Positions 20,614 to 64,000 of a stretch of 64,000 bases of DNA are shown here, piece by piece; positions within the stretch are counted from its first letter, which is position 1; each line of letters begins with the position of its first letter. Source of the stretch: Aurantibacillus circumpalustris (lineage in GTDB: Bacteria > Bacteroidota > Bacteroidia > B-17B0 > Aurantibacillaceae); contig NZ_CP121197.1 in assembly GCF_029625215.1 (NCBI RefSeq), positions 1,798,001 to 1,862,000 of the forward strand, in the 5' to 3' direction. A program made the position numbers and the translations under genes. The notes beneath the pieces were generated by a model that was given only the letters and a program-made list of their open reading frames with translations, was not told the DNA's origin and made no database searches.

Positions 20614-23394
20614 ATGAAAAAAAATTACATCAAACGAGAAAAAAGGATTTACGCATCAATTAATATTGCTGCTATATTCATTCTGCTTATTATTTTCAAC
20701 GTAAGTCAAGTTTTTGCGCAGGTAAGCTATACTTTCACATCTGCGGGTCAGGCTGGACCTGCAGGTCCAAACCAAACTCAAATTAACACTGCGTACTTAT
20801 CAACTAACTTGAATGGATCTGTTACTGTTTCAAGCGGTATCCAATCTTTCACAATACCAGCGACCGGCCCTTACAGAATCAAAGCGATTGGAGCGCAAGG
20901 GGCTTACAATGGTGGTTATGGAGCTTCTATATCAGGAGATTTTACATTAACTGCTGGTACTGTTTTAAAAATTCTTGTTGGTCAAATGGGAACTCAAATG
21001 TCGAATGGAACATACATTGCCGGGGGAGGAGGAGGAGGTTCATTTGTTTCGAGTACAGGTAACGTACCTTATGTTGTTGCCGGTGGTGGCGGTGGAAATG
21101 GAGATGGCTACGGCGGATCACCTCTTCCATGTTGTTTAAGTGGGATGCAGGCTACCACTGTAATCAATGGAAATCCTCGCCCAGGTGGATCGAATGGAGG
21201 TGCTAGCGGAAATGGTGGAACGTGTGGGACTTCAGGTGGGATTGCAGGTTCAGGTGCTGGATTTTACGGAGACGGTTCTTTGTGTCAAGCCCTAGGTATT
21301 GCTTATTCATTTACAAATGGAGGAGCTGGCGGACTTTGTGGTTATCTTGCTAATACCAGTGGCGATGGCGGATTTGGTGGCGGCGGTGGCTGTTACAACT
21401 CTGGCACTGGTCAGCGCGGCGGTGGCGGTGGTGGTTATTCAGGTGGTGGCGGTGGAGATACACCTAATTTTACTGAGTCAAACGCACCAGGCGGTGGTGG
21501 TGGCTCTTACAATGCTGGTGCAAACCAAACGAATGCTATAAATACTTTCACGGGTAGCGGCCGGGTAATTATAGATTTATTATGCGACATACATATAACG
21601 AGTTCTGGTACAAATAGTATTAGTCCTGTTATTTGTGCAGGTCAATCATTAACCTTAACAACAAACGCGGCAAGTAATTATACATGGAGTAACGGCAATT
21701 CAACAAGTACAACTTTAGTCGTTTCTCCAACAAGTAACACAACTTATTCAATAGTTGGAACAAGTTCAACAAGTTGTAACTCTTCTGGTGCCATTACTGT
21801 ATTAGTTAATGGTGGTATACCAACATTGACCATAACAAACGCTCTTAACACGGTTTGTTTTGGACAGTCGGCAACTTTAACCGCTAGCGGTGCAAATACA
21901 TACTCATGGACTGGAGGCGTAATAAATGGACAACCATTTGCGCCAAGTACGACGGGTTCTTACACTGTTACAGGCGTAAATGCGTGTGGTAGTTCAACTG
22001 CAACTACATCAGTATCGGTTTCGCCTCTTGTGGTTACTGCTTCTGCTAATCCTCCAATTGTTTGCATTGGTGTATCTACTACTTTAACGGCGGTTTCTAC
22101 AATAAATAGTTATACCTGGCAACCTACAGGACTTACTGGTTCAATAGCAATAATTAGCCCTTTAGTTCCAACTATTTATACAGTGTCTGCTTCAGATGGT
22201 ACCTGTGCTGGCACGGCGACCGTAAGCGTTGGTACAAAACCAAATCCAACAATTACCGTTGTACCTTCAGCAACGATGGTATGCGAAGGCGCTGCGGTTA
22301 CAATGACTGCCAGTGGTGCCTTGTCGTACACATGGACTACCCCAGCAGCAACAGGTTCAGTAATTACAGTTAACCCTACAATACCATCCGTGTATTATGT
22401 TGTTGGTTCAAATTCACTTAATTGTAATTCAGCTGTTGCAAGCCAATTTGTATTAACAGCGATAACACCTACGCTAGTTGTGACCGCAAGCAAAACTGTA
22501 ACTTGCCCTGGAGGCACTGTTAACCTTTTAGCGAGTGGAGCCACAAGTTATACCTGGACTAATGGACCGAACTCTTCGGGATACACTGTAAACCCTCTGG
22601 TTTCTACTATTTACACGGTTATCGGCATTGCAGGCACAAGTACTTGTGTAGGAACCCGAACGATTGATATTGGCGTATTAAACACAAGCGTGTCGGTTTC
22701 AGCCTCATCTCAAAGTGTCTGCCTTGGAAAGAGTACAACCTTAACTGCAAGTGGTGCAAATAGTTATAATTGGGCAGGTGTGGGTTCAGGTATTTCCGTT
22801 AATGTTACTCCGCTTACCACAACAATATATACGGTAGTTGGTACAACAACCGCTGGCGTTTTAAATTGTCAAAGCTCTAATAGTATAGCAATTGTTGTAT
22901 TTGATACTCCAACATTAACTATTGCTGCAAGTAAAACCGTTATGTGTAAGAATGATCCCGGACCAAAGTTAACTGCAAACGGATCTTTAGTTTCTTATAC
23001 TTGGAGCACAGGTGCAAATACTCAAACTGTGAATACGTCTCCAACAATAACTAGCAATATATTTTCTGTTACAGCAACCGATGCAAATGGATGTGAAGGA
23101 AATACTTCTATCCATATAACTGTTAATCCATGCACTGGGATATCAACTATTGGAGGTTATCAAAATTTAATTTCAGTGTATCCGAATCCAAATAATGGTG
23201 AATTTGTTATTGCTTCGGTTTCAGATATTAAACTAAAGTTGATTAATGAACTTGGTCAAATCGTTGAATTAATAGAATTAACGCAACAAAATGATCATAA
23301 AGTTTCAATTACTAAATTGGCCAATGGAATTTATTTTATGGTGGGACAGAATAATAACGAACAAATCAATCAAAAGATCATTGTCTCGAATTAA
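20614..23394 (+). CDS. T9SS-secreted protein with ALK/LTK-like glycine-rich domain and seven Ig-like repeats
   Basis: This 926-residue protein has a signal peptide (hydrophobic core about 17-30, cleavage near FAQ). Residues 38-322 resemble the glycine-rich extracellular region of animal ALK/LTK receptors (Pfam Gly_rich, PF12810). YTFTSAGQAGPAGPNQTQ is followed by IPATGPYRIKAIGAQGA, KILVGQMG, several poly-Gly blocks (AGGGGGGSFVSS, VVAGGGGGNGDG, RGGGGGGYSGGGGG) and a closing GSGRVIIDL strand. Seven Ig-like repeats of about 72 residues follow (323-840), each with VCxGxSxTLTASGA and YTW cores. A type A T9SS sorting domain (VYPNPNNGEFVI) ends the protein. In ALK the region binds small cytokine-like ligands; what it does here is unknown, but surface binding is plausible. 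Confidence 0.87.
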   Translation: MKKNYIKREKRIYASINIAAIFILLIIFNVSQVFAQVSYTFTSAGQAGPAGPNQTQINTAYLSTNLNGSVTVSSGIQSFTIPATGPYRIKAIGAQGAYNGGYGASISGDFTLTAGTVLKILVGQMGTQMSNGTYIAGGGGGGSFVSSTGNVPYVVAGGGGGNGDGYGGSPLPCCLSGMQATTVINGNPRPGGSNGGASGNGGTCGTSGGIAGSGAGFYGDGSLCQALGIAYSFTNGGAGGLCGYLANTSGDGGFGGGGGCYNSGTGQRGGGGGGYSGGGGGDTPNFTESNAPGGGGGSYNAGANQTNAINTFTGSGRVIIDLLCDIHITSSGTNSISPVICAGQSLTLTTNAASNYTWSNGNSTSTTLVVSPTSNTTYSIVGTSSTSCNSSGAITVLVNGGIPTLTITNALNTVCFGQSATLTASGANTYSWTGGVINGQPFAPSTTGSYTVTGVNACGSSTATTSVSVSPLVVTASANPPIVCIGVSTTLTAVSTINSYTWQPTGLTGSIAIISPLVPTIYTVSASDGTCAGTATVSVGTKPNPTITVVPSATMVCEGAAVTMTASGALSYTWTTPAATGSVITVNPTIPSVYYVVGSNSLNCNSAVASQFVLTAITPTLVVTASKTVTCPGGTVNLLASGATSYTWTNGPNSSGYTVNPLVSTIYTVIGIAGTSTCVGTRTIDIGVLNTSVSVSASSQSVCLGKSTTLTASGANSYNWAGVGSGISVNVTPLTTTIYTVVGTTTAGVLNCQSSNSIAIVVFDTPTLTIAASKTVMCKNDPGPKLTANGSLVSYTWSTGANTQTVNTSPTITSNIFSVTATDANGCEGNTSIHITVNPCTGISTIGGYQNLISVYPNPNNGEFVIASVSDIKLKLINELGQIVELIELTQQNDHKVSITKLANGIYFMVGQNNNEQINQKIIVSN

Positions 23395-31950: not shown

Positions 31951-33186
31951 ATGAAAACAAACCGAACTTATTTATTTATTGCCAGTTCATCGATTGCGCT
32001 TTTGGTCGTTCTTATTATTCAAGTGAACTGGATTTTGGAGACTGCAAAAATAAAAGAAGAGTTATTTACTGAAAAGGCAAACATTGTTCTTTCAAGAACC
32101 GCCGAGGCTGTGTCATCTGACTCTACTATGCGAACTAACATTGAAAGCGGCCTTAGTAAAGAAGAAGTTAGCAGGATAGATTCTTTGCTTATGTTTTACA
32201 TGCGCTTTTATAATATTCGTATTGCTTATTATTTTGAAGTAAAGCCAGGTCAATCTTCTCTTAAAAAGGATACTGCCATTGCTCATACGCCCTATACAAA
32301 GTTTGCAGATACTTACACTCAGTGTTTAAAGGAAAATAATGGTAGTAATGCCTTAGAATTAAAACTTGTTTTTCCGGATAAAGAAGAATTTATCATTGAG
32401 GAAATGGGAATTCCATTCATCTCTTCTGTTTTATTGATACTCATTGTGGGCGTTATGTTTTGGCGAACATCCGTCTCCTTGCTTAAAGAAAAACAAATAT
32501 CAGAACACACTACTGATTTTTTAAATAACATGACGCATGAATTTAAAACCCCTTTAACAAACATTGCTTTAGCCGGCAAAATGATGATTAAGGAATCAAA
32601 TAGTAAACAAGAAGAAAAAGTAAAACATTATTGTGGAATCATTCTGGAAGAAAATGAAAAACTCAGTCGACAAGTTGAACAAGTGTTGAGTATGACTGCC
32701 TTAGAAAGAGGCGAAATTCCAATTCAAAAAACAGACTTAGATATTCACCAATTAATAAATGATTCTATAAAATGTATTCACGTACAAATTGAAAACGCAA
32801 ATGGAGGGCTATTATTAAACTTGAATGCGGAAAAATTTGCAATCAAGGGAGATAAAACACATCTTACGAATGCTTTATGTAACTTAATAGATAATGCTAT
32901 TAAATATTCTGAAGAAAAACCTGAAATAAAAATTGAGACAACGAATAACACTCAGAATTTAATCATTCAAATTTCTGATAGTGGCATCGGCATTGATAGC
33001 GAATACCATGAAAAAGTATTCGAAAAGTTTTTTAGAGTACCAACGGGTAATGTGCACGATGTAAAAGGATTTGGTTTGGGTTTGGCCTACATTAAAAAAA
33101 TTATTGAACTACATGGCGGCAAAATTGAATTAGAAAGCGAAAGGGGAGAAGGCACAACGTTTATTATCTCATTACCTTATGTCTGA
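31951..33186 (+). CDS. Sensor histidine kinase, HisKA type
   Basis: This membrane kinase of 411 residues has two membrane helices (about 8-30 and 152-170) enclosing a periplasmic sensor region of about 120 residues without a recognised fold. The HisKA domain has the phosphoacceptor His in NNMTHEFKTPLTNI (about residue 198). The HATPase domain has an N-box (LCNLIDNAIKYS), a G1 box (SDSGIGI), an F box (EKFFRVPTG) and a G2 box (GFGLGLAYI). Its end overlaps the OmpR-type regulator gene by 8 bp. It probably controls the divergent operon through the 11-bp repeats upstream. Confidence 0.93.
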   Translation: MKTNRTYLFIASSSIALLVVLIIQVNWILETAKIKEELFTEKANIVLSRTAEAVSSDSTMRTNIESGLSKEEVSRIDSLLMFYMRFYNIRIAYYFEVKPGQSSLKKDTAIAHTPYTKFADTYTQCLKENNGSNALELKLVFPDKEEFIIEEMGIPFISSVLLILIVGVMFWRTSVSLLKEKQISEHTTDFLNNMTHEFKTPLTNIALAGKMMIKESNSKQEEKVKHYCGIILEENEKLSRQVEQVLSMTALERGEIPIQKTDLDIHQLINDSIKCIHVQIENANGGLLLNLNAEKFAIKGDKTHLTNALCNLIDNAIKYSEEKPEIKIETTNNTQNLIIQISDSGIGIDSEYHEKVFEKFFRVPTGNVHDVKGFGLGLAYIKKIIELHGGKIELESERGEGTTFIISLPYV

Positions 33187-33886
33187 AGAACGTTTAAAAA
33201 TATTACTTGCTGAAGATGATCTCAACTTGGGTGTGCTTTTGGTTGATTACCTGGAGACGGAAGGTTTTGATGTAAAATTATGTAAAGACGGAGATCTGGC
33301 TTTAAAAGCTTTTGGCGATTATTCTTTTGACTTGTGCATATTAGATGTGATGATGCCCAAGCTAGATGGCTTTTCCCTGGCCAAACAAATTAAATTAAAA
33401 AATAAAGTCATCCCCCTAATTTTTATTACCGCAAAATCTTTAAAAGAAGACAAATTAAAAGGCTATGATTTGGGCGCTGATGATTATGTCACGAAACCTT
33501 TTGATGAAGAAGAGTTGCTTTGGAAAATAAAGGCCCTTATTCGTAGAATTCCCGAAAACAAAACTCTGCGCAAGGTCGAAGTCATTTCAATTGGAAAATA
33601 TGTGTTCGATTTTAATAATCAGTCGTTAAGTATTTCAGGAAAAGTGAAACGCATTACCGAAAAGGAAAGTGACATTCTAAACTATTTATGCGATCATAAA
33701 AATAACATCATAAAGCGGGAAGATATGGTAAAAACGCTTTGGGGTGAGAGCGACTATTTTTTTGGAAGAAGCCTGGATGTTTTTATTACAAAAATCAGAA
33801 AGTACTTAAAAGAAGATCCAACCATTACAATTGAAAATGTGTTTGGTGTAGGTTTTATTTTTAATGTGCCAGTGAAGCGGTTTTAA
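33179..33886 (+). CDS. OmpR-family response regulator
   Basis: This 235-residue regulator has a receiver with the acidic residues in LLAEDDLN, the phosphoacceptor Asp in DLCILDVMMPKLDGF, Thr/Ser in FITAKS and Lys in VTKPFDEEELLWKI. The C-terminal winged helix (about 135-230) has ITEKESDILNYLCDHKNNII and GRSLDVFITKIRKYLKEDP, as in PhoB/OmpR proteins. The start overlaps the end of the kinase gene by 8 bp. It is the best candidate to bind the GTTA repeats at 31869-31912. Confidence 0.94.
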   Translation: MSEERLKILLAEDDLNLGVLLVDYLETEGFDVKLCKDGDLALKAFGDYSFDLCILDVMMPKLDGFSLAKQIKLKNKVIPLIFITAKSLKEDKLKGYDLGADDYVTKPFDEEELLWKIKALIRRIPENKTLRKVEVISIGKYVFDFNNQSLSISGKVKRITEKESDILNYLCDHKNNIIKREDMVKTLWGESDYFFGRSLDVFITKIRKYLKEDPTITIENVFGVGFIFNVPVKRF

Positions 33887-38776: not shown

Positions 38777-39670
38777 ATGTTGAACAATTCCTCAAAAAAG
38801 ATCTTTGTGTCTTTATGTGGCGAAAATCAAAATTCGTTACGCGATGAGCTTTCATCCGTTTTAGATAGCGCAGGCATGAATGTATTATCTACGAATGCCT
38901 ATTCTCCTGAAACACTGGTGAAAGTGACAGAAGAAAATATTTTAAAAGCTAATTGCTCCATTCATATTATTTTTCCAGAGTACGCTCCGCTTCTTACAAC
39001 AGATAATACCAATTCTATTTCAAGATTTCAATTTTTTGAAGCCAAAAGAAAACTTGCTTCTGATCCTGATTTCAGAATAATCGTATGGCTACCGCCCTCT
39101 ACTGGTATAACAAATGTTGAAACAAAACAATTAGATTTTATTAATGAAGTGAGAAATAATATCTCAAAAAACATGATTTTTAGTAATGCTGAAACGCCTA
39201 TTCAGCTTACTGATGACATCCGCTCACTGCTTGAATTTAAAGATGATGTTGAATTTGATACCAATCTGACTGATATTTTTTTAATTTCAAATCAATTGGA
39301 TGAAAGTGAAGCGAATGAAATTATGGATATGTTGAGTGATATTGTGCCTGTTGAAAGATTGAGTATTGTGCAAGATAGCGATATGGACTATTCGGAGTAT
39401 TGCACACAACAAATAGGTAAAAGTAAATTGGCCGTAGTATATTTTAAGGAGTCTGGAGAATGGGCGCTCCCTTTTACTCAGCAAGTTTGGAAAAAAATTG
39501 GTGGGGCATCTTCACACACCCCAATACTCTTGATTGGTGATGAAGACCCGGAAAGAAATTTTAATAAAAAATTTAAGGCACCAAAAGTAATGTCATTAAT
39601 CATTGCCGGAGAATTGATTCCACTTGAAATAAAAATGAGTTATGATAAAGTTATGGAAGGTAAAGCTTAA
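38777..39670 (+). CDS. Tandem TIR-like domain protein upstream of a STAND NTPase
   Basis: This 297-residue soluble protein appears to have two TIR-like halves. The first (about 5-135) opens KKIFVSLCGENQNSLRDEL and has ANCSIHIIFPEY, then SRFQFFEAKRKLA with a Glu in the position of the TIR catalytic Glu, then RIIVWLPPS. The second (about 160-290) has TDIFLISNQLDESEANEIM, GKSKLAVVYFKES and TPILLIGDEDP, with no clear catalytic Glu. TIR domains signal by NAD+ hydrolysis or by protein contact; which applies is unknown. The stop is 12 bp before the STAND gene, indicating one operon. Confidence 0.6.
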   Translation: MLNNSSKKIFVSLCGENQNSLRDELSSVLDSAGMNVLSTNAYSPETLVKVTEENILKANCSIHIIFPEYAPLLTTDNTNSISRFQFFEAKRKLASDPDFRIIVWLPPSTGITNVETKQLDFINEVRNNISKNMIFSNAETPIQLTDDIRSLLEFKDDVEFDTNLTDIFLISNQLDESEANEIMDMLSDIVPVERLSIVQDSDMDYSEYCTQQIGKSKLAVVYFKESGEWALPFTQQVWKKIGGASSHTPILLIGDEDPERNFNKKFKAPKVMSLIIAGELIPLEIKMSYDKVMEGKA

Positions 39671-39682
39671 ATCGTTTAATAA

Positions 39683-42600
39683 ATGGTGAACGAAAAAATA
39701 TGTCCATACCCTGGTCTTAGGCCTTTTAGCGAAGACGAGTCTATTTATTTTAAAGGTCGTGAAGATCACATCGATAAGATAATTGCGCGACTTGAAAAAA
39801 ATAAATTCGTTATGCTTACCGGTGCTTCTGGCGACGGAAAATCTTCTATTGTATATGCGGGTGTTATTCCAAATGCACGGGCTGGGTTTTTTAAAGCCAA
39901 GTTTAACAACTGGGTGGTGGCTGATTTCAGGCCCGACCGATCACCTTTAAAAAATCTATCAACAGTAATTTCCGAAAAATTAGAATACAATAATACCGAC
40001 AGTGTTGAAAAAGAACTGGGATACGGTTTTTCTAAATTAATTAGCCTTTACAAAAACTCACCATTTCATCTCGATACTAATAGTGAAGAATGGCGCAATG
40101 CGGACGATAATGAAAGGAAAAAATTAAAAAGAAAAGCGGCTAATCTTTTTATTCTTGTCGATCAATTCGAAGAGTTTTTTACAAATCCTGAAAATTATCA
40201 AAATGGAAAGCCTTCTGCTAATTCCATGACCGTTGTGAACCTTCTTCTTGAAACGGCAAAAATAGCACTCGAACAAGATCTTCCCATCTATATTATTTGC
40301 ACTATGCGTTCTGATTATATTGGACAATGTGCAACGTTTAGAGGCTTACCTGAATACATTGGTTTCAGTCAGTTTTTTGTTCCGCGCTTGAAAAGAAAAG
40401 AAATTCATCAGGTAATTGAAGAGCCTGCCATATTAAGTGGTAATGCAATTTCAAATCGTCTTATTGAAACGCTTATCAATGGAGTAGGGGAGGGCTTTGA
40501 TCAATTGCCGATTTTGCAACATGCATTAAATAGTTTGTGGCATGCGGCGAACAATGGACATGAAGAAATGGATCTGATTCATCTTGCTATGATTGGTGGA
40601 TTGTCGGATACCAATCTTTCCAAGGAAGAAAAAGTAAGATTTGATCACTGGCTTTCAAAACAACCAGAGTTTTATAAAAAGTACTTCGTCAATTTTTCGC
40701 TCGAACAATCTTTGTCTGCGAATACAAATATTCTTTATGAAACGGCTGATACGTATTATAATGCAACGCATGAACAAAAAATTAGTAAGACGGATGCACA
40801 ATTAATCCTTAAAAACACATTTCAATCATTAACAAAAATTGATGACTCGCGCGCGGTACGTAATCGTATAACTTTACAAGAAATAACAGATATTATCAAT
40901 CAACCCAACATTTCAACAGCTGTTGTAGGTGGTGTGATTAATATTTACCGTGAACAGGGTAATTTTGTAAAACCTTTTATTACCAAAGAAACTTCTTCAC
41001 ACCAATTAAAAGATAATGAGGTATTAGATATTACGCACGAAAGTTTAATTCGTAATTGGGATCTTCTCAAACAATGGGTAGATGAAGAAAGTGAAAACAG
41101 AGCGAATTATCTGGATTTTTATAAGCAGATCCAGCGTTGGGTAAATGGTGGAAGAACGCAAGCTTATTTATTGGCAAAAGGACCACTTGCTTTTTTTGAA
41201 AGTTGGTATGTGACTTCACGCATCAATATGTATTGGTTGGTGAAATACGATCAAAGTGAATTATCACAAGATCAGAAAAAGAAAATAGCAGCAGAGCAAA
41301 TAAAAAATGCAGAAGAATTTTTAAAGAAAAGCAATGCTTTACTTAAATTAAGGCGACGTTTAATTCTCTCTTTAGTAAGCGGCGTTGTTGTGTTTGTATT
41401 ACTCGGACTAACCTATGCTTTGTACGGACAAAAAGTTAAAACAAAAAAAATCGAACACCTTAAATTTGGAGAACTTCAAACAAAGGTTATAGCACCATCA
41501 AGTTTTGTTTCTGTTGGAGAAGAATACAAGGCCGATATATTTCTTCTTACACGTAGTTCACAATTTACACCACTTGAACCGAAAATATTTTTAGGAAAAT
41601 TTGATGTGAACGGAAGACTCAATGAAATATATGATACGGTATCAGTTCAAGATGGTATGGGAAGTTTGTCGGTAAAAACATCAGAACCAGGTGAGCACTT
41701 GGTGCAAGGGGAGTACCAAATAAAAAGTCCATCAGGTTTAGTTCTCAGCTATCCATTTGAAGCAAGTTATAAGGTAGCACGATCATCTGTAATGATTTCT
41801 GCAGATCAAATGAATGTGTTTTATGCAGGGATTAAAAATCCTATTAGTATTGGTGTGGCTGGTATAGCTCCAGCTGATCTTGTTATTAAAACAGATCGCA
41901 ACGTATCTATCGAACCTGTTGGCCCAGGGCATTACGATCTATTGTCGCCGATACCTCAAGTTATTAGTATTTCAGTATTAGCAAAAATGAAAGGGCAAGT
42001 GATTCCTATGGGTCCACCCGTAAAATTTCGCGTTAAACCCATGCCTGATCCCACGCCTGTTTTTGGTACCGTAAAAGGTTCGTCTAAAATAAATAAGCAA
42101 TTGCTTTTAAGCACACCTGCACTTAAAGCTGTATTGTTTGGATTTGATTTTAATACCTCGTTCACTATTACATCTTTTGAATTGGTTTTAATTCGTGATA
42201 ATGAAACTTTTAAACTATCCAATTCCTCAAGTGGAGAAATTACCGGTGAAATGAGAAGAGAATTTAAAAAGCTGACAAACGGAAACAGAATTATTTTTAG
42301 TAATATAGAAGCTCTTGGCACCGATGGTTTAAACCGAGAACTGTCGCCTGTGGTACTTGAACTTACAGGCGAATTGCCAAAGGACGACAAAACTGAAACT
42401 GCGGCTAAAGTATTTATTCCGACCACTGCTGAAAAAGCAGAGTTTCCAGGTGGAGCAGCTGCCTTAAAAGAATTTATTCAGGAAAGTATAAAGTACCCTG
42501 CGATGGCTCAAGAAGGAGGAGTGAGCGGGAAGTGCCTAATTAAATTTCTTGTAAACGAAGATGGCAGCATTAGTAATGTTGAAGTTGCCGAAACGGTACC

Positions 42601-42757
42601 AGGTTGCCCAGAGTGCGATGATGAAGCGATACGTGTTATTAAATCAATGCCAAAATGGAATCCTGCAAAAAATGGAGATCGTGTTCAAAAATCAACATAT
42701 TTGTTGCCAGTAAGTTTTCATATTTTGGCAACAGAAGCAACTACACCTAAAAAGTAA
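39683..42757 (+). CDS. STAND NTPase fused to GldM-like periplasmic domains and TonB C-terminal domain
   Basis: This 1024-residue protein begins with the nSTAND1-type signature CPYPGLRPFSEDESIYFKGR. The P-loop is GASGDGKS (47-54), the Walker B-like LFILVDQFEEFF is near 155, and a helical sensor region runs to about 550. One membrane helix (about 557-580) follows. Residues 600-905 resemble domains D2-D4 of the T9SS motor protein GldM: SVGEEYKADIFLLTR, LSYPFEASYKVA, SADQMNVFYAGIKNPISI, KFRVKPMPDPTPVFG and LFGFDFNTSFTITSFEL. A TonB C-terminal domain ends the protein (about 915-1020, EFPGGAAALKEFI, GKCLIKFLVNEDGSI). The likely topology is NTPase in the cytoplasm and GldM/TonB parts in the periplasm. 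It follows the TIR-like gene by 12 bp. Confidence 0.85.
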   Translation: MVNEKICPYPGLRPFSEDESIYFKGREDHIDKIIARLEKNKFVMLTGASGDGKSSIVYAGVIPNARAGFFKAKFNNWVVADFRPDRSPLKNLSTVISEKLEYNNTDSVEKELGYGFSKLISLYKNSPFHLDTNSEEWRNADDNERKKLKRKAANLFILVDQFEEFFTNPENYQNGKPSANSMTVVNLLLETAKIALEQDLPIYIICTMRSDYIGQCATFRGLPEYIGFSQFFVPRLKRKEIHQVIEEPAILSGNAISNRLIETLINGVGEGFDQLPILQHALNSLWHAANNGHEEMDLIHLAMIGGLSDTNLSKEEKVRFDHWLSKQPEFYKKYFVNFSLEQSLSANTNILYETADTYYNATHEQKISKTDAQLILKNTFQSLTKIDDSRAVRNRITLQEITDIINQPNISTAVVGGVINIYREQGNFVKPFITKETSSHQLKDNEVLDITHESLIRNWDLLKQWVDEESENRANYLDFYKQIQRWVNGGRTQAYLLAKGPLAFFESWYVTSRINMYWLVKYDQSELSQDQKKKIAAEQIKNAEEFLKKSNALLKLRRRLILSLVSGVVVFVLLGLTYALYGQKVKTKKIEHLKFGELQTKVIAPSSFVSVGEEYKADIFLLTRSSQFTPLEPKIFLGKFDVNGRLNEIYDTVSVQDGMGSLSVKTSEPGEHLVQGEYQIKSPSGLVLSYPFEASYKVARSSVMISADQMNVFYAGIKNPISIGVAGIAPADLVIKTDRNVSIEPVGPGHYDLLSPIPQVISISVLAKMKGQVIPMGPPVKFRVKPMPDPTPVFGTVKGSSKINKQLLLSTPALKAVLFGFDFNTSFTITSFELVLIRDNETFKLSNSSSGEITGEMRREFKKLTNGNRIIFSNIEALGTDGLNRELSPVVLELTGELPKDDKTETAAKVFIPTTAEKAEFPGGAAALKEFIQESIKYPAMAQEGGVSGKCLIKFLVNEDGSISNVEVAETVPGCPECDDEAIRVIKSMPKWNPAKNGDRVQKSTYLLPVSFHILATEATTPKK

Positions 42758-42901
42758 TTGATTCGATCTGGATCATTTGCATGCGAGAATATACTAAATA
42801 GCACGATTAGCTTGTTTCCACATGAAAATTTGAAGATTTCGTAATTGAGAATTATTCTTTAACATTGTTTACCGAGACTCACAAAAAACTATTAAAACAG
42901 A

Positions 42902-44713
42902 ATGAAAAAGGACTGGCACTTTTCGAACGAGTTTTCAAGGAGTTTTGTTTTCCTACTGATAATATTTCTAGGCACCCAGGTGCATTGCCAACATTTGGAA
43001 TCTTTGTTAAGGGTCGACCAAGATTCCAAAATGAAAGCGGTTTTTATTTACAATTTTACAAAATATTTCGAGTGGTCAAATTTATCTAACAGGAATGATT
43101 TTCGTATTGCATTGGTGGGAGCGGACAGTCTACTTGTAAAAGAATTTAAGAACCTTGCAAGCGAAAAAAAAGTTGGTCAAAAGGAAATTTCAGTATTGAC
43201 GTATGATGGTTATACTCCGATGATGAAAATTGGAGCAGAGGTACTTTATGTGAACATGTCCAAATATCCAAATTATGATTTTAGTCATGATATGAAAAAC
43301 ACACTTGTGGTGTCGGATAACGGTAAGGATCTAGATAACGCCATGATCGCATTTACGTATATTCAAGGAATGCTTAAATTCGCTGTGAATAAAGTTAACA
43401 TTCAAGAAGCCGGTTTCCTAAAAATGCACCCTGACTTCGAAATGCTTGCCTCAGCAGTGATCAGGAATAAAAGTGAGTACAAAAAAAATAGAATTGAACA
43501 CGCAAAGTGGGAAAACGTATTTGAGAAATTGAAATCTTCTGTAACAGGCGATAAAAAAGAAGTTGCATTTACAAAAAAAGAAATAGAAGAAGTCGTTGGT
43601 AAATTTTCAGCGCAAACGAACGAGATAAGCACCCAAAAACAAAAGGCCTTGATTAATGAAATTGAAATTCGCGACCAGAAGCGGTTGCGAAATATTTCGA
43701 TAGGGTTTATTATTTTATTCATGATTTTATCTGGTTTTATCTTCAAGAGCTTACAACAAAACAAAAAGCAAAACAAAATTATTACTGCCCAGAAAGAAGA
43801 GGTTGAAAAGCAAAATCATGTGATCAATAAACAGAAGCAGCTTGTTGAGGAAAAGCATAGGGAAATAACCGATAGCATCAACTATGCAGAAAGGATCCAG
43901 CGTAGTTTTTTAGCAACAAAAGAACTTCTTAATAAAAATTTGAAAGATTACTTTGTGTTTTTTAAACCCAAAGATGTTGTAAGTGGTGACTTCTATTGGG
44001 CGGAAAGGTTTAGTAATGGTAATTTTATTCTTGTAACGGCTGACAGCACAGGCCATGGTGTTCCGGGTGCCATTATGAGTATTCTAAACATTACTAGTCT
44101 CGAAAAAGCAATTGAAAATAATACGCAACCCGCAGATATTTTAAACGCTGCTCGTAAAACAATCATCGAGCGTTTAAAAAAGGATGGGAGTGCAGAAGGT
44201 GGAAAGGACGGTATGGATTGTAGTCTACTTATGTTCGATTCTAAGAATAAAAAATTAATTATCGCTGCAGCCAATAATCCGGTTTGGATTGTATGTAAAG
44301 CCACTCAAACAAACGCTGTCACTTCGAGTAGCGACGGAGGAGGCGTATTGACTAGTGATGTAACTAATTCTCGATCCGAGCAAAGCTCTACCCGGACTGA
44401 CATTGAAGTACTCGAAATAAAACCTAACAAAATGCCGGTAGGCAAACACGATAAACAAGATGTTTCATTTACACAACAAGAAATTAATTTGCAAAGCGGT
44501 GATGTTATCTATTGTTTAACCGATGGTTTTGCTGATCAATTCGGCGGACCAAACGGCAAAAAATTTATGAGTAAAAATCTCAGGGAATTATTATCCACTA
44601 ACTCCCATTTATCCATGCAGGAACAAAAACAATTGTTGGAATCCACCTTCACAAACTGGATCGGAAATATAGAGCAGGTAGACGACATCACTGTCATTGG
44701 AATTCGTGTATAA
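42902..44713 (+). CDS. YfiR-domain/SpoIIE-type PP2C phosphatase membrane protein
   Basis: The 603-residue protein has a signal peptide, a periplasmic YfiR/DUF4154 domain (about 40-190: MKAVFIYNFTKYFEW, FRIALVGAD, LVVSDN), a coiled coil and a membrane helix (about 263-280). A second coiled coil with the signature ITDSINYAERIQRSFL leads into a C-terminal SpoIIE-type PP2C serine phosphatase (about 350-603: FKPKDVVSGDFYWAE, VTADSTGHGVPGAIMS and DDITVIGIRV). It probably turns a periplasmic signal into dephosphorylation of an anti-sigma or anti-anti-sigma partner. The start is 144 bp after the STAND gene, on the same strand, so co-expression is possible. Confidence 0.88.
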   Translation: MKKDWHFSNEFSRSFVFLLIIFLGTQVHCQHLESLLRVDQDSKMKAVFIYNFTKYFEWSNLSNRNDFRIALVGADSLLVKEFKNLASEKKVGQKEISVLTYDGYTPMMKIGAEVLYVNMSKYPNYDFSHDMKNTLVVSDNGKDLDNAMIAFTYIQGMLKFAVNKVNIQEAGFLKMHPDFEMLASAVIRNKSEYKKNRIEHAKWENVFEKLKSSVTGDKKEVAFTKKEIEEVVGKFSAQTNEISTQKQKALINEIEIRDQKRLRNISIGFIILFMILSGFIFKSLQQNKKQNKIITAQKEEVEKQNHVINKQKQLVEEKHREITDSINYAERIQRSFLATKELLNKNLKDYFVFFKPKDVVSGDFYWAERFSNGNFILVTADSTGHGVPGAIMSILNITSLEKAIENNTQPADILNAARKTIIERLKKDGSAEGGKDGMDCSLLMFDSKNKKLIIAAANNPVWIVCKATQTNAVTSSSDGGGVLTSDVTNSRSEQSSTRTDIEVLEIKPNKMPVGKHDKQDVSFTQQEINLQSGDVIYCLTDGFADQFGGPNGKKFMSKNLRELLSTNSHLSMQEQKQLLESTFTNWIGNIEQVDDITVIGIRV

Positions 44714-57610: not shown

Positions 57611-57753
57611 AGGATTTATAATAAAAAGACTTTTGTAGTTTTGAATTAAGCGAATTTGTTAAGTCAAGACCATTAAAAATTTACAAATATAAAGATTATC
57701 TTTATTTCACAATTTCTGAACCCCGCATGAAAATCACTTATAAATTAAATTTT

Positions 57754-58974
57754 ATGAAAAGAATATTTCTCATTTCACTCGTTGTTTTTGCAAGCCAAGC
57801 TTTGGACGCACAAGTTATTTTTAACCCATCAAACACTGGCGTGCAAGGTAGTTTCATTGCTCAGTCGATATGCAGTGTAACTTCTACCGATGTTTATGCG
57901 GTGGGGGGATTATATACGTCGAGCTGGACGCCACAAGCCTATAAGTCTATCAACAAAGGTGTCAGCTGGAGCAGTGTAGCCTTTACCGGCATTAATCCCG
58001 CACATATTCTTTACAACGAAATTTGCTCTACAGGAACCTCTATGATCCTTACTGCTCAGAACAGCTCCGGGAGTAGCACCGGCATTTATTCTTCTACAGA
58101 TGGCATCACATGGACCCCTTCGGGTTCAGGCATTCTAAGTAATTTTTCTGGTTTCGATCTGCTTTCTGTTTCTCCATCAGAATTGTACGCGGTCGGAACG
58201 CTATATCTGCCTTATTTGCCCAAAATATATAAATCAACCGACGATGGTGCAACCTGGGTTAGTTTGCCAATTACCGGGGTACCACCTAGCTCGCAGAATT
58301 TTTTAAATGCGTTCTGCAAAATTGGGGGAACTTTTTTGCTCGCTACCTCGAATAGTGCAGGGAACGTTGGCAGCATGTTTTCATCCCTTGATGCTATTAA
58401 CTGGACGTATTCCGCGAATGGAATTCCGAATGATGTTCAAATCTATGACCTGTTAACGACATCTACCAATGAAGTTCTTGCCGTGGGTAGTGTATATGAT
58501 CCCAGCGTTTTGGGTTTTATAACTCAAATATACAGGTCTACTGATGCTGGTGCGAACTGGAGCAGTTTGAACTACGCTGGCCTAGATCCCTATATGACAG
58601 ATTTCAAATCAATTTGTCAGTCTGGCAATAAAATTTTAGTGGGGGCCCAGATAAAATATATGGCAGGTTCTAATAGTATTTACTCGACTAATGTAAGTTT
58701 GTTAACGACTGGTGTGGGCGCTTATGACACTGATCTTTTTTCTTGTTTTCCGAATCCTACCAATGGTGTGGTAACACTAAACTCTGGGGTAGAATTAAGC
58801 CAAATCACTGTATCAGATATCTCTGGAAGAACGGTCTTAAAGAAGAACATAGAACCAACATCCTTTAGCAATAATAGCATCGTCATTGATCTGAGCCCAT
58901 ATGGCAAAGGATTGTATTTTTTATCGTTGCAAGAAAACGGTAGTTCAAAGACTATTAAAATAATTGTGGAGTAA
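57754..58974 (+). CDS. T9SS-secreted Ycf48/BNR-like beta-propeller protein
   Basis: The ATG at 57754 gives MKRIFLISLVVFASQALDAQ, a signal peptide; ATG 57727 would add a poor extension. The 406-residue protein has repeated BNR/photosystem-assembly-factor-like blades: DVYAVGGLYTSSWTPQAYKS, GVSWSSVAFTG, STDGITWTPSG, KSTDDGATWVSLPITG and RSTDAGANWSSLN. It ends in a type A T9SS sorting domain (CFPNPTNGVVTLNSG to GLYFLSLQENGSSKTI). Function is unknown, possibly glycan or surface binding. Confidence 0.87.
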   Translation: MKRIFLISLVVFASQALDAQVIFNPSNTGVQGSFIAQSICSVTSTDVYAVGGLYTSSWTPQAYKSINKGVSWSSVAFTGINPAHILYNEICSTGTSMILTAQNSSGSSTGIYSSTDGITWTPSGSGILSNFSGFDLLSVSPSELYAVGTLYLPYLPKIYKSTDDGATWVSLPITGVPPSSQNFLNAFCKIGGTFLLATSNSAGNVGSMFSSLDAINWTYSANGIPNDVQIYDLLTTSTNEVLAVGSVYDPSVLGFITQIYRSTDAGANWSSLNYAGLDPYMTDFKSICQSGNKILVGAQIKYMAGSNSIYSTNVSLLTTGVGAYDTDLFSCFPNPTNGVVTLNSGVELSQITVSDISGRTVLKKNIEPTSFSNNSIVIDLSPYGKGLYFLSLQENGSSKTIKIIVE

Positions 58975-63026: not shown

Positions 63027-63132
63027 CAATATTAATAAATTCCTGCGCCCAACTCTCAGCTGCTTTTCCCATAATATGAAAAATTAACTTTCGTATTTGT
63101 CATCAAATCGATAAAGCCTATTCAAGTTGTAT

Positions 63133-63140
63133 TATATTTG
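63133..63140 (+). promoter_or_regulatory. Bacteroidota -7 box TATATTTG before the final gene
   Basis: TATATTTG (63133-63140) fits TAnnTTTG, 43 bp before the GTG at 63184. No TTG is seen at the usual -33 spacing. The intergenic region 63027-63183 holds no other feature. Confidence 0.4.
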
Positions 63141-63183
63141 CGCCCCTTTTAGAATAACAGGAATATTAAAAATACCAAAAAAC

Positions 63184-64000
63184 GTGGAAAACATACAAAC
63201 TCTGGGAAGTCAAAATTCTGCCGGTATAAGTAAAATAACCTCAGCAGTCAAAAATATCATTGGTGAGTTTCATCACTCAGACGATTCGGAGGATGCGAAA
63301 CTTAAAAAGTCGACACTTCTTTTCATGTCATTCCTGTTTGCTATTACGGGAATGATATGGGGCGTGGTCTATTTTTTTAATGGAATTTATGGCCCGGCAA
63401 CGATACCTTTTTTTTATGGAATCCTATCACTGGCGAGTGCGTATGTTTTTATTATGACCAAGCGTTATAATTTTTTTCGTTTCAGTCAGATCTTCCTAAT
63501 TCTTATTCTCCCACTGTGCTTACAAATTACTCTTGGGGGCTTCGTTGCATCTGGTTCGGTGATTCTTTGGGCAATTCTCTCGCCCATCGGAGCTCTGGTA
63601 TTTTATGAGGTAAAGCATTCGTTGATTTGGTTTGTAGTCTATTTGACAATCGTAATCTTTGCTTTTGAAATAAACAGCGTCGCCGAAAAAACATTCGAAG
63701 CTAATATTTCAGAAAGCTTTACCGACGTTTTTATTTTCCAGAACATTATCGGAATCTCTGTATTGATCTATGTTCTGCTTTATTATTTTGTGAGTAAACA
63801 AGCTGAGCTGAAGAAAGTTATTTCGACAAGGAATTTAGAAATTACGCAATCTATAGCCTACGCCAGGCGAATTCAGGAAGCCAAGCTGCCTAAGAAAGAA
63901 GAAATTTATCGTTCTTTACCCAATTGTTTTGTTCTTTACAAACCTAAAGCCGTTGTAAGTGGTGATTTTTATTTCTTTCACAAAACGGAACACTCCGTTT
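63184..64000 (+). CDS. SpoIIE/PP2C-type phosphatase with membrane sensor domain, 3' end outside window
   Basis: From GTG at 63184 the frame is open to the window end (about 272 residues). The N-terminus is polar (VENIQTLGSQNSAG), followed by about six membrane helices (about 40-215: STLLFMSFLFAITGMIWGVV, IPFFYGILSLASAYVFIM, FRFSQIFLILILPLCLQI). Then come the signature EITQSIAYARRIQEAKLP and the beginning of the phosphatase domain, VLYKPKAVVSGDFYFF. It parallels the YfiR/phosphatase at 42902 but has a membrane sensor in place of YfiR. The real gene continues past the window end. The GTG start is the best in-frame candidate seen, with no ATG near it. Confidence 0.82.
   Translation, partial: MENIQTLGSQNSAGISKITSAVKNIIGEFHHSDDSEDAKLKKSTLLFMSFLFAITGMIWGVVYFFNGIYGPATIPFFYGILSLASAYVFIMTKRYNFFRFSQIFLILILPLCLQITLGGFVASGSVILWAILSPIGALVFYEVKHSLIWFVVYLTIVIFAFEINSVAEKTFEANISESFTDVFIFQNIIGISVLIYVLLYYFVSKQAELKKVISTRNLEITQSIAYARRIQEAKLPKKEEIYRSLPNCFVLYKPKAVVSGDFYFFHKTEHSV

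What the first reader, a model, noticed from the sequence alone, without database searches (positions are those of the whole stretch)
38777..44713. TIR-like, STAND-GldM-TonB and YfiR-phosphatase gene set
Three consecutive genes combine parts not usually seen together: a tandem TIR-like protein, a STAND NTPase that crosses the membrane and carries GldM-type and TonB C-terminal domains, and a YfiR/SpoIIE phosphatase. The 12-bp gap between the first two argues for one transcript; the third is 144 bp further on. The set could be an immune-like or envelope-stress switch: TIR and STAND as cytoplasmic signal modules, GldM/TonB parts coupling to the envelope, and the phosphatase as output. I know of no described system with this arrangement, though I could not search.
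Basis: partly seen in the sequence, partly recalled or inferred. Interest (0 to 1): 0.9.

Follow-up and report, generated by a model that had tools for sequence, protein, structure and literature searches.

The report
Membrane STAND switch with GldM-TonB sensor
An uncultured Bacteroidota bacterium carries a membrane-crossing, NLR-like switch protein whose outer half is built from parts of a secretion motor (GldM) and of the nutrient-uptake coupler (TonB); with its TIR-like partner it belongs to a widespread family with interchangeable periplasmic ends.

Summary
The three ORFs and nearly all domain calls hold. The conserved unit is the first two genes. P1 is a DUF4062 (TIR-like) domain plus a Rossmann-like domain; P2 is an nSTAND1 NTPase, one membrane helix and a variable, probably periplasmic end. 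Of 46 related P1 places examined, nSTAND1 is fused in 10 and follows within 1 kb in 26. The two co-evolve (r 0.88, 35 pairs), and a helix follows nSTAND1 in 42 of 43 copies. The end is WD40-like, long and helical, or, only here and in one relative, GldM D2-D4; the TonB domain was seen only here. SpoIIE phosphatases recur downstream (14 of 25 places; about 0.7 expected), but the window's YfiR-SpoIIE gene is no orthologue of the ones found there, so the third gene is the weakest member. Some relatives carry GldL- or GldM-like genes beside the STAND, and in two genomes the set sits between gldN and a phosphatase. Best reading: an NLR-like transmembrane receptor that reports the state of the envelope or secretion machine inwards, probably through PP2C signalling. 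An immune role is possible but untested. New variant of a known kind.

The parts
38777..39670 (+). P1, 297 aa: DUF4062/TIR-like domain plus Rossmann-like domain; partner of the STAND
   Evidence: family alignment A2; model pLDDT 83.5; neighbourhoods
38789..39241 (+). P1 domain 1 (residues 5-155), DUF4062/TIR-like; E88 (39038-39040) is the candidate catalytic Glu, assigned by motif spacing and helix only
   Evidence: (DUF4062 in relatives); E88 is E in 22 of 46 distinct family sequences
39266..39667 (+). P1 domain 2 (residues 164-297), Rossmann-like, the best conserved part of P1
   Evidence: W229, W238, G243 in 44 of the 44 sequences that have the region, D175 in 46 of 46; fold hits PurE, Rab, CoA mutase
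39683..42757 (+). P2, 1024 aa: nSTAND1 - TM - GldM D2-D4 - TonB C-terminal domain
39704..41161 (+). nSTAND1 NTPase (residues 8-493), Walker A and B intact, cytoplasmic by the positive-inside rule
41360..41416 (+). transmembrane helix (residues 560-578)
41456..42364 (+). GldM_2nd, _3rd, _4th (residues 592-894); lacks the GldM transmembrane helix and D1
   Evidence: (TIGR03517 positions 218-517 of 524, 109.8 bits, cut-off 180)
42488..42724 (+). TonB C-terminal domain (residues 936-1014), 57% identical over 110 residues to the genome's TonB-type protein at 4316-5107 of L114
42902..44713 (+). P3, 603 aa: signal peptide (by eye) - YfiR (43-178) - TM (265-283) - coiled coil (by eye) - SpoIIE/PP2C (339-603)
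   Evidence: probable but weakest member of the set

Best explanation
P1 and P2 form an NLR-like transmembrane receptor. P2's nSTAND1 NTPase sits in the cytoplasm, its helix crosses the inner membrane, and its periplasmic end (GldM D2-D4 followed by a TonB C-terminal domain) reaches towards the outer membrane, where GldM D4 would touch the GldK/GldN ring of the type IX secretion system or a mimic of that contact, and the TonB domain a TonB-dependent transporter. A change in those partners (loss, jamming, attack, altered load) would alter the STAND's nucleotide state and assembly and so its cytoplasmic partner P1. Output is most likely signalling rather than killing, since P1's candidate catalytic glutamate is lost in half of the family and PP2C phosphatases recur beside these receptors; in this genome P3, which has its own periplasmic YfiR sensor, would be that phosphatase, acting on SiaC-type proteins held elsewhere in the genome. 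Shown: the domains, intact ATPase and phosphatase motifs, the membrane helix, conservation and co-evolution of P1 with nSTAND1, recurrence of SpoIIE and Gld-type neighbours. Inferred: topology, what is sensed, P1's action, phosphatase coupling and its target.
For: P1 fused to nSTAND1 in 10 and within 1 kb upstream of it in 26 of 46 places; Mantel r 0.884 for 35 pairs and 0.812 for the 25 unfused, 0 of 2000 permutations each. A LysM-like end in fused relatives (LysM-protein hits for L071; by eye in L072, L082) fits a periplasmic end. GldM part: PorM as best solved structure by sequence and top 7 Foldseek hits PorM/GldM. Gld link in relatives: P1-STAND-membrane protein-SpoIIE lie directly after gldK-L-M-N in L017 and L018 (names by NCBIfam equivalogs in L018); a GldL_N-like membrane protein beside the STAND (Pfam over cut-off in L059; 23.9 against 24.0 in L019); two GldM-like lipoproteins after the STAND in L056. 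In the window's genome gldKLMN is followed by a SpoIIE phosphatase 70.6-75.3% identical in that domain to those of four P1 loci. SpoIIE within 8 kb downstream in 14 of 25 places against about 0.66 expected from 345 matches in 14 genomes of about 52.6 Mb. SiaC beside P1 sets in L056, L062, L107; four SiaC in the own genome.
Against: The GldM end is rare (window and L016) and the TonB end unique in what was searched (lists capped), so these contacts rest on homology alone. P3 is not an orthologue of the other loci's phosphatases examined; the genome has 31 SpoIIE matches, so its place could be incidental (about 1% by density). 11 of 25 testable places have no SpoIIE downstream. No siaB, siaC or siaD gene is next to the window set. 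P1 domain 1 is only weakly DUF4062 by its own score. P1 relatives are in 6 of 87 genomes of the order and 38 of 395 of the class, a patchy spread as expected of immunity too. The P2-end model was built from an alignment with GldM proteins, so its fold match is partly circular; pLDDT 70.9.
Confidence: 0.55

Rival explanations
1. Abortive-infection immunity: P2 detects phage or bacteriocin attack at the outer membrane or T9SS, assembles, and activates P1's DUF4062 domain to destroy NAD+.
For: DUF4062 proteins are TIR-like NADases and an antiphage system (PMC13174449; abstract, first part of Results and passages seen); E88 is kept in the window's P1; fused relatives have the order DUF4062 - STAND - WD40 (L071), which that preprint describes for NWD1, NWD2 and TEP1; distribution patchy; one relative pair on a Hymenobacter plasmid.
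Against: E88 is not Glu in 24 of 46 family sequences; no PADLOC hit for P1 or P3 and only E 0.033 for P2; the PADLOC hits in two relatives lie in the WD40-like part; the ten neighbours scanned in the window are not defence genes; no P1 relative in 50,697 phage records.
Confidence: 0.22
2. Accessory regulator or part of the T9SS/gliding machine itself: P2 inserts GldM-type arms into GldK/GldN rings in place of GldM and gates secretion with ATP instead of proton flow.
For: GldM D2-D4 kept with D4, the domain that contacts PorN-PorK in PorM (PMC5790014 Discussion); sets beside gldKLMN (L017, L018); GldL-like proteins beside STANDs.
Against: P2 lacks the GldM helix and D1; in the four GldL-like proteins with the H-[WY]-P motif the residue at the place of the proton-carrying GldL E49 is N, T, L or F (by-eye alignment; role of E49 from passages of PMC8986121), so they are not motors; most family members have WD40-like or helical ends instead.
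Confidence: 0.13
3. P1 and P2 are a unit, but P3 is an unrelated neighbour from the expanded SpoIIE family.
For: 144-bp gap; P3's phosphatase domain is 72.2% identical to a paralogue elsewhere in the genome (L137) against 52-54% to the phosphatases of L017-L020; 31 SpoIIE matches in the genome.
Against: SpoIIE genes from more than one SpoIIE group lie downstream of P1 in 14 of 25 places, which suggests repeated recruitment; no terminator-like site on + in the gap.
Confidence: 0.35

Closest known systems
DUF4062 NADases: Swarozyc (bacteria) and TEP1/NWD1/NWD2/NPHP3 (eukaryotes), PMC13174449
   Same: DUF4062-type domain beside a P-loop NTPase; fused relatives have the order DUF4062 - STAND - WD40 (L071)
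   Different: Here the NTPase is nSTAND1 with a membrane helix; P1 is a separate protein with a second conserved domain; the candidate catalytic Glu is lost in half of the family; the sensor end lies outside the cytoplasm; Swarozyc has a DUF4062 domain with an auxiliary portal-binding domain
nSTAND1 conflict systems (PMC8195603, PMC10907252; passages seen)
   Same: nSTAND1 NTPase with interchangeable N- and C-terminal parts
   Different: Partner is the P1 family; the periplasmic GldM/TonB end is not mentioned in the passages found
GldM/PorM of the type IX secretion system
   Same: Periplasmic domains D2, D3, D4
   Different: No GldM transmembrane helix or D1; scores 109.8 against the equivalog cut-off of 180; joined to a STAND
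TonB
   Same: C-terminal domain, 57% identical to that of the genome's own TonB-type protein
   Different: The TonB N-terminal part is absent; carried by a STAND
SiaA of the SiaABCD pathway (PMC7647112, abstract seen)
   Same: Membrane-bound PP2C phosphatase; SiaA model matches at 1.3e-44
   Different: 152.8 bits against a cut-off of 700; YfiR input domain; no sia genes adjacent

Membership tests
STAND NTPase, nSTAND1 | nSTAND1 profile match over the cut-off | tested here: met
   231.3 bits against 27.1, residues 8-493
STAND NTPase, nSTAND1 | Walker A and Walker B motifs | tested here: met
   GASGDGKS at 47, LFILVDQFE at 155
STAND NTPase, nSTAND1 | Ligand-induced oligomerisation | not testable with these tools
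   needs protein
DUF4062 TIR-like NADase (Swarozyc, TEP1) | DUF4062 profile over the cut-off in P1 | tested here: not met
   13.2 bits against 24.7; relatives L021 and L066 are over it, so a diverged relative rather than a filed member
DUF4062 TIR-like NADase (Swarozyc, TEP1) | Catalytic Glu | tested here: inconclusive
   E88 fits by motif spacing and predicted helix, not by superposition on a solved DUF4062; E in 22 of 46
DUF4062 TIR-like NADase (Swarozyc, TEP1) | NAD+ hydrolysis, phage defence | not testable with these tools
   needs assay
GldM/PorM (T9SS motor) | Domains D2-D4 | tested here: met
GldM/PorM (T9SS motor) | Equivalog score, with GldM transmembrane helix and D1 | tested here: not met
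   109.8 against 180; match starts at model position 218
TonB | C-terminal domain | tested here: met
   51.0 bits against 24.6
TonB | TonB N-terminal part and exbB/exbD beside the gene | tested here: not met
   the only helix of P2 follows nSTAND1; the ORFs beside P2 are P1 and P3
SiaA phosphatase | PP2C acidic motifs | tested here: met
SiaA phosphatase | Equivalog score and adjacent siaB/siaC/siaD | tested here: not met
   152.8 against 700; Pfam finds DUF3050 in the next long ORF downstream; SiaC copies lie elsewhere
Known anti-phage systems of PADLOC-DB 2.0.0 | Significant profile match of P1-P3 | tested here: not met
   none for P1 and P3, mads_8 at E 0.033 for P2; Swarozyc is not expected in a 2023 library

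The most novel reading that the evidence does not exclude
P2 is a bacterial 'integrated-decoy' receptor: a membrane-spanning NLR analogue whose periplasmic end carries copies of two host machines, the T9SS arm (GldM D2-D4) and the TonB coupling domain (57% identical to the cell's own), as bait. Phages, bacteriocins or toxins that seize TonB-dependent transporters or the T9SS ring would be caught on the decoys, and the STAND would trigger the TIR-like partner or the phosphatase. The swapping of WD40-like, LysM-like, helical and GldM ends across the family would be the bacterial parallel of integrated domains in plant NLRs.
Probability: 0.13. Interest if true: 0.92.

Novelty: new variant of a known kind. 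Interest (0 to 1): 0.62.

Why it matters
STAND receptors characterised in bacteria are, to my recollection, mostly cytoplasmic sensors of phage proteins. A family that puts the sensing end across the inner membrane, next to the secretion and uptake machines, would be a bacterial counterpart of receptors that watch the cell surface, and would tie NLR-type switches to type IX secretion and to PP2C phosphatase signalling. The GldM and TonB ends give concrete, testable ligands, which few STANDs of unknown trigger offer. The family is also a new setting for DUF4062, recently reported as an NADase domain, in which half of the members seem to have lost the catalytic residue.

Tried and rejected
Rejected: a strictly conserved three-gene system (P3 is not orthologous); a recent duplicate of the genome's own GldM (36% identity; the GldM part groups with that of L016, support 0.992, apart from own GldM); recent foreign DNA (GC 0.340, 0.366, 0.365 for P1-P3 against 0.363 for the window); P1 on phages (no match).

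Led nowhere: promoter-like and terminator-like sites are no more frequent than in shuffles (23 against 23.7; 4 against 4.3); Bacteroidota-type promoter motif (recalled) found no exact -7 hit in the stretches scanned, only one-mismatch hits inside coding sequence. Foldseek with the P1 model gave low-TM hits first. Domain 2 of P1 has no specific fold relative (its absence there proves nothing). Literature searches listed no paper on an nSTAND-GldM protein, the P1 family or a YfiR-SpoIIE protein; the library holds open-licence papers only.

Rows dropped: three loci (L091, L096, L105) on the same contigs as L057, L056, L084, and L021 (P1 match under 80 bits). Of one search's 20 loci, L090, L094, L098-L101, L103, L104 and L106 repeat contigs already held (L016, L055, L059, L017, L018, L019, L059, L058, L020) and were not counted again. 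Of the places listed, eleven weaker ones (G516, G762, G672, G649, G692, G711, G728, G601, G576, G731, G789) were not fetched. The phosphatase tree holds 14 of the own genome's 31 SpoIIE matches. The 46 places include near-identical pairs (L017/L018) and are not independent. A first run of the phosphatase tree dropped the window's own P3 as a duplicate and stopped with an error; one search replaces it.
Full report
Observation. Pfam gives nSTAND1, GldM_2nd, GldM_3rd, GldM_4th and TonB_C for P2, YfiR (DUF4154) and SpoIIE for P3, and only a weak DUF4062 (E 0.11) for P1. ATPase and phosphatase motifs are intact; P2 and P3 each have one predicted internal helix, and P3 a signal-peptide-like start by eye. 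PorM is the best solved relative of the P2 end, E 1.8e-21, then TonB. A model of the P2 end (pLDDT 70.9) has PorM/GldM as its seven best Foldseek matches, partly circular because GldM proteins were in its alignment.

What P1 is. A family alignment gave a model with two alpha/beta domains (pLDDT 83.5, pTM 0.53). Domain 1 aligns to DNPH1 (Z 13.7) and TIR domains (RPV1 12.9, RPS4 12.6, RUN1 12.6); domain 2 to generic Rossmann folds. 300 chains reach Z 8, so the fold class alone says little. A profile search of solved structures put four TIR chains first, but at E 0.12-0.24. Longer relatives carry TIR_2 and DUF4062 ahead of domain 2: L066 (29.0 and 27.1 bits, both over the cut-offs) and L021 (38.6 and 29.8) are over; L067, L081, L084 and L142 are under in one or both. 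The candidate catalytic Glu, E88, is Glu in 22 of 46 distinct sequences, whereas W229, W238 and G243 of domain 2 are kept in 44 of 44. So domain 2 is the constant part, and NADase action cannot be what defines the family.

Distribution. P1 relatives were found in 6 of 87 genomes of the order, 38 of 395 of the class and 7 of 395 of the phylum. The 20 named records are all uncultured Bacteroidota; one more is on a plasmid of Hymenobacter tibetensis, annotated 'hypothetical protein', followed by an nSTAND1 protein. No phage record matched.

Neighbourhood. In 46 places, P1 is fused to nSTAND1 in 10 and followed by it within 1 kb in 26; the other 10 include contig ends and places where P1 stands beside a phosphatase with the STAND some kilobases away or not held. 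Distances in the P1 and nSTAND1 trees correlate (r 0.884, 35 pairs; 0.812 for 25 unfused; 0 of 2000 permutations each). 42 of 43 nSTAND1 proteins have a helix just after the NTPase. The part beyond varies: WD40 (Pfam-tested in L071, by eye elsewhere), with a LysM-like tail in some, long helical (by eye), or GldM. STAND joined to GldM appears only in the window and G027 (L016) among the listed rows for 87 genomes, and only in the window among those for 395 genomes; both lists are capped. L016 ends at GldM D4; the TonB domain is seen only in the window and is 57% identical to that of the genome's own TonB-type protein. The two fused GldM parts group together (0.992) apart from the genome's own GldM.

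Type IX link. In L017 and L018 the set P1 - STAND - GldL-like membrane protein - SpoIIE follows gldK, gldL, gldM, gldN directly (all four are NCBIfam equivalogs over cut-off in L018). In the window's own genome gldKLMN is followed by a SpoIIE phosphatase 70.6-75.3% identical in that domain to those of L017-L020, with no P1 or STAND between. L056 has P1 - STAND - GldL-like - two GldM-like lipoproteins - two SpoIIE genes. My GldL-like profile, made from L017 and L019, finds eight loci, two of them the makers and L066 weakly; Pfam GldL_N is over cut-off only in L059, just under it in L019, and absent in L017 and L056. Where the H-[WY]-P motif exists (L017, L019, L056, L059) the place of the proton-carrying Glu is N, T, L or F, by eye.

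Phosphatase link. SpoIIE lies within 8 kb downstream on the same strand in 14 of 25 places with enough sequence; 11 have none, many from lineages with tandem STANDs. From 345 matches in 14 genomes (about 52.6 Mb) I expect about 0.66, though the places are not independent. These phosphatases belong to several SpoIIE groups, which suggests repeated recruitment. The window's P3 belongs to yet another group and is closest to a paralogue elsewhere in its genome (72.2%); in the capped list no match covers its YfiR part together with the phosphatase. SiaC genes are near three P1 sets (L056, L062, L107) and the own genome has a DUF6272-DUF6272-SiaC-SiaC-ABC-SpoIIE cluster (L111; that DUF6272 is the SiaB family is recalled). 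SiaC was seen by eye in those loci and then tested; it was not counted across all loci.

Mechanism. I read P1-P2 as a transmembrane STAND receptor with a periplasmic end made of machine parts. GldM D4 contacts the PorN-PorK ring in PorM (PMC5790014, abstract and Discussion), and GldL drives conformational change in the GldM periplasmic domain (PMC8986121, abstract and passages), so an arm of this kind is suited to report on that ring. In Pseudomonas, SiaA and SiaB set the phosphorylation of SiaC by partner switching (PMC7647112, abstract); a similar output here is inference. DUF4062 as NADase and antiphage domain comes from PMC13174449 (abstract, first part of Results, passages), a preprint, which also compares the DUF4062-NACHT-WD40 order of TEP1 and NWD1 with APAF-1.

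Verdict. Real, mostly as described, with the system redrawn: two conserved genes, an exchangeable periplasmic end, a probable but non-orthologous phosphatase. New variant of a known kind; interest 0.62.

Noticed in passing
L071, L072, L082 (fused forms): Bacteroidota proteins with the order DUF4062-type P1 - nSTAND1 - helix - WD40-like - LysM-like tail, the domain order of animal TEP1/NWD1 plus a cell-wall-binding end (P1 and nSTAND1 by HMM; WD40 tested in L071).
   Followed up: partly
L110 4006-10628 (G000:C1:4383000-4397000): The genome's gldKLMN operon is followed by a SpoIIE phosphatase gene; in L017 and L018 P1-STAND-GldL-like genes lie between gldN and its orthologue.
   Followed up: yes
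L056 1923-14958: P1-STAND-GldL-like-two GldM-like lipoproteins-two SpoIIE, with an ABC/lipoprotein/SiaC group upstream like that in the window's genome at L111.
   Followed up: partly
L017, L019, L056, L059, L066, L076, L077: A membrane protein family (about 260-326 aa) beside the STANDs, some with the H-[WY]-P motif of GldL but without its proton-carrying Glu.
   Followed up: partly
window 63127-64000: Start of another SpoIIE ORF that runs past the window end (L131 628-2091); the genome has 31 SpoIIE matches.
   Followed up: no
window 20614-23394 and 57727-58974: Two proteins with type IX secretion sorting tails (Por_Secre_tail), so the host uses the T9SS.
   Followed up: no
window 31951-33886: Overlapping histidine kinase and response regulator genes.
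   Followed up: no
L091, L092, L093, L097: Between the WD40-like STAND and the SpoIIE gene lie a secreted protein of about 356-395 aa and, where held, one or more PKD-like lipoproteins (by eye), perhaps further periplasmic sensor parts; L093 ends before any SpoIIE.
   Followed up: no
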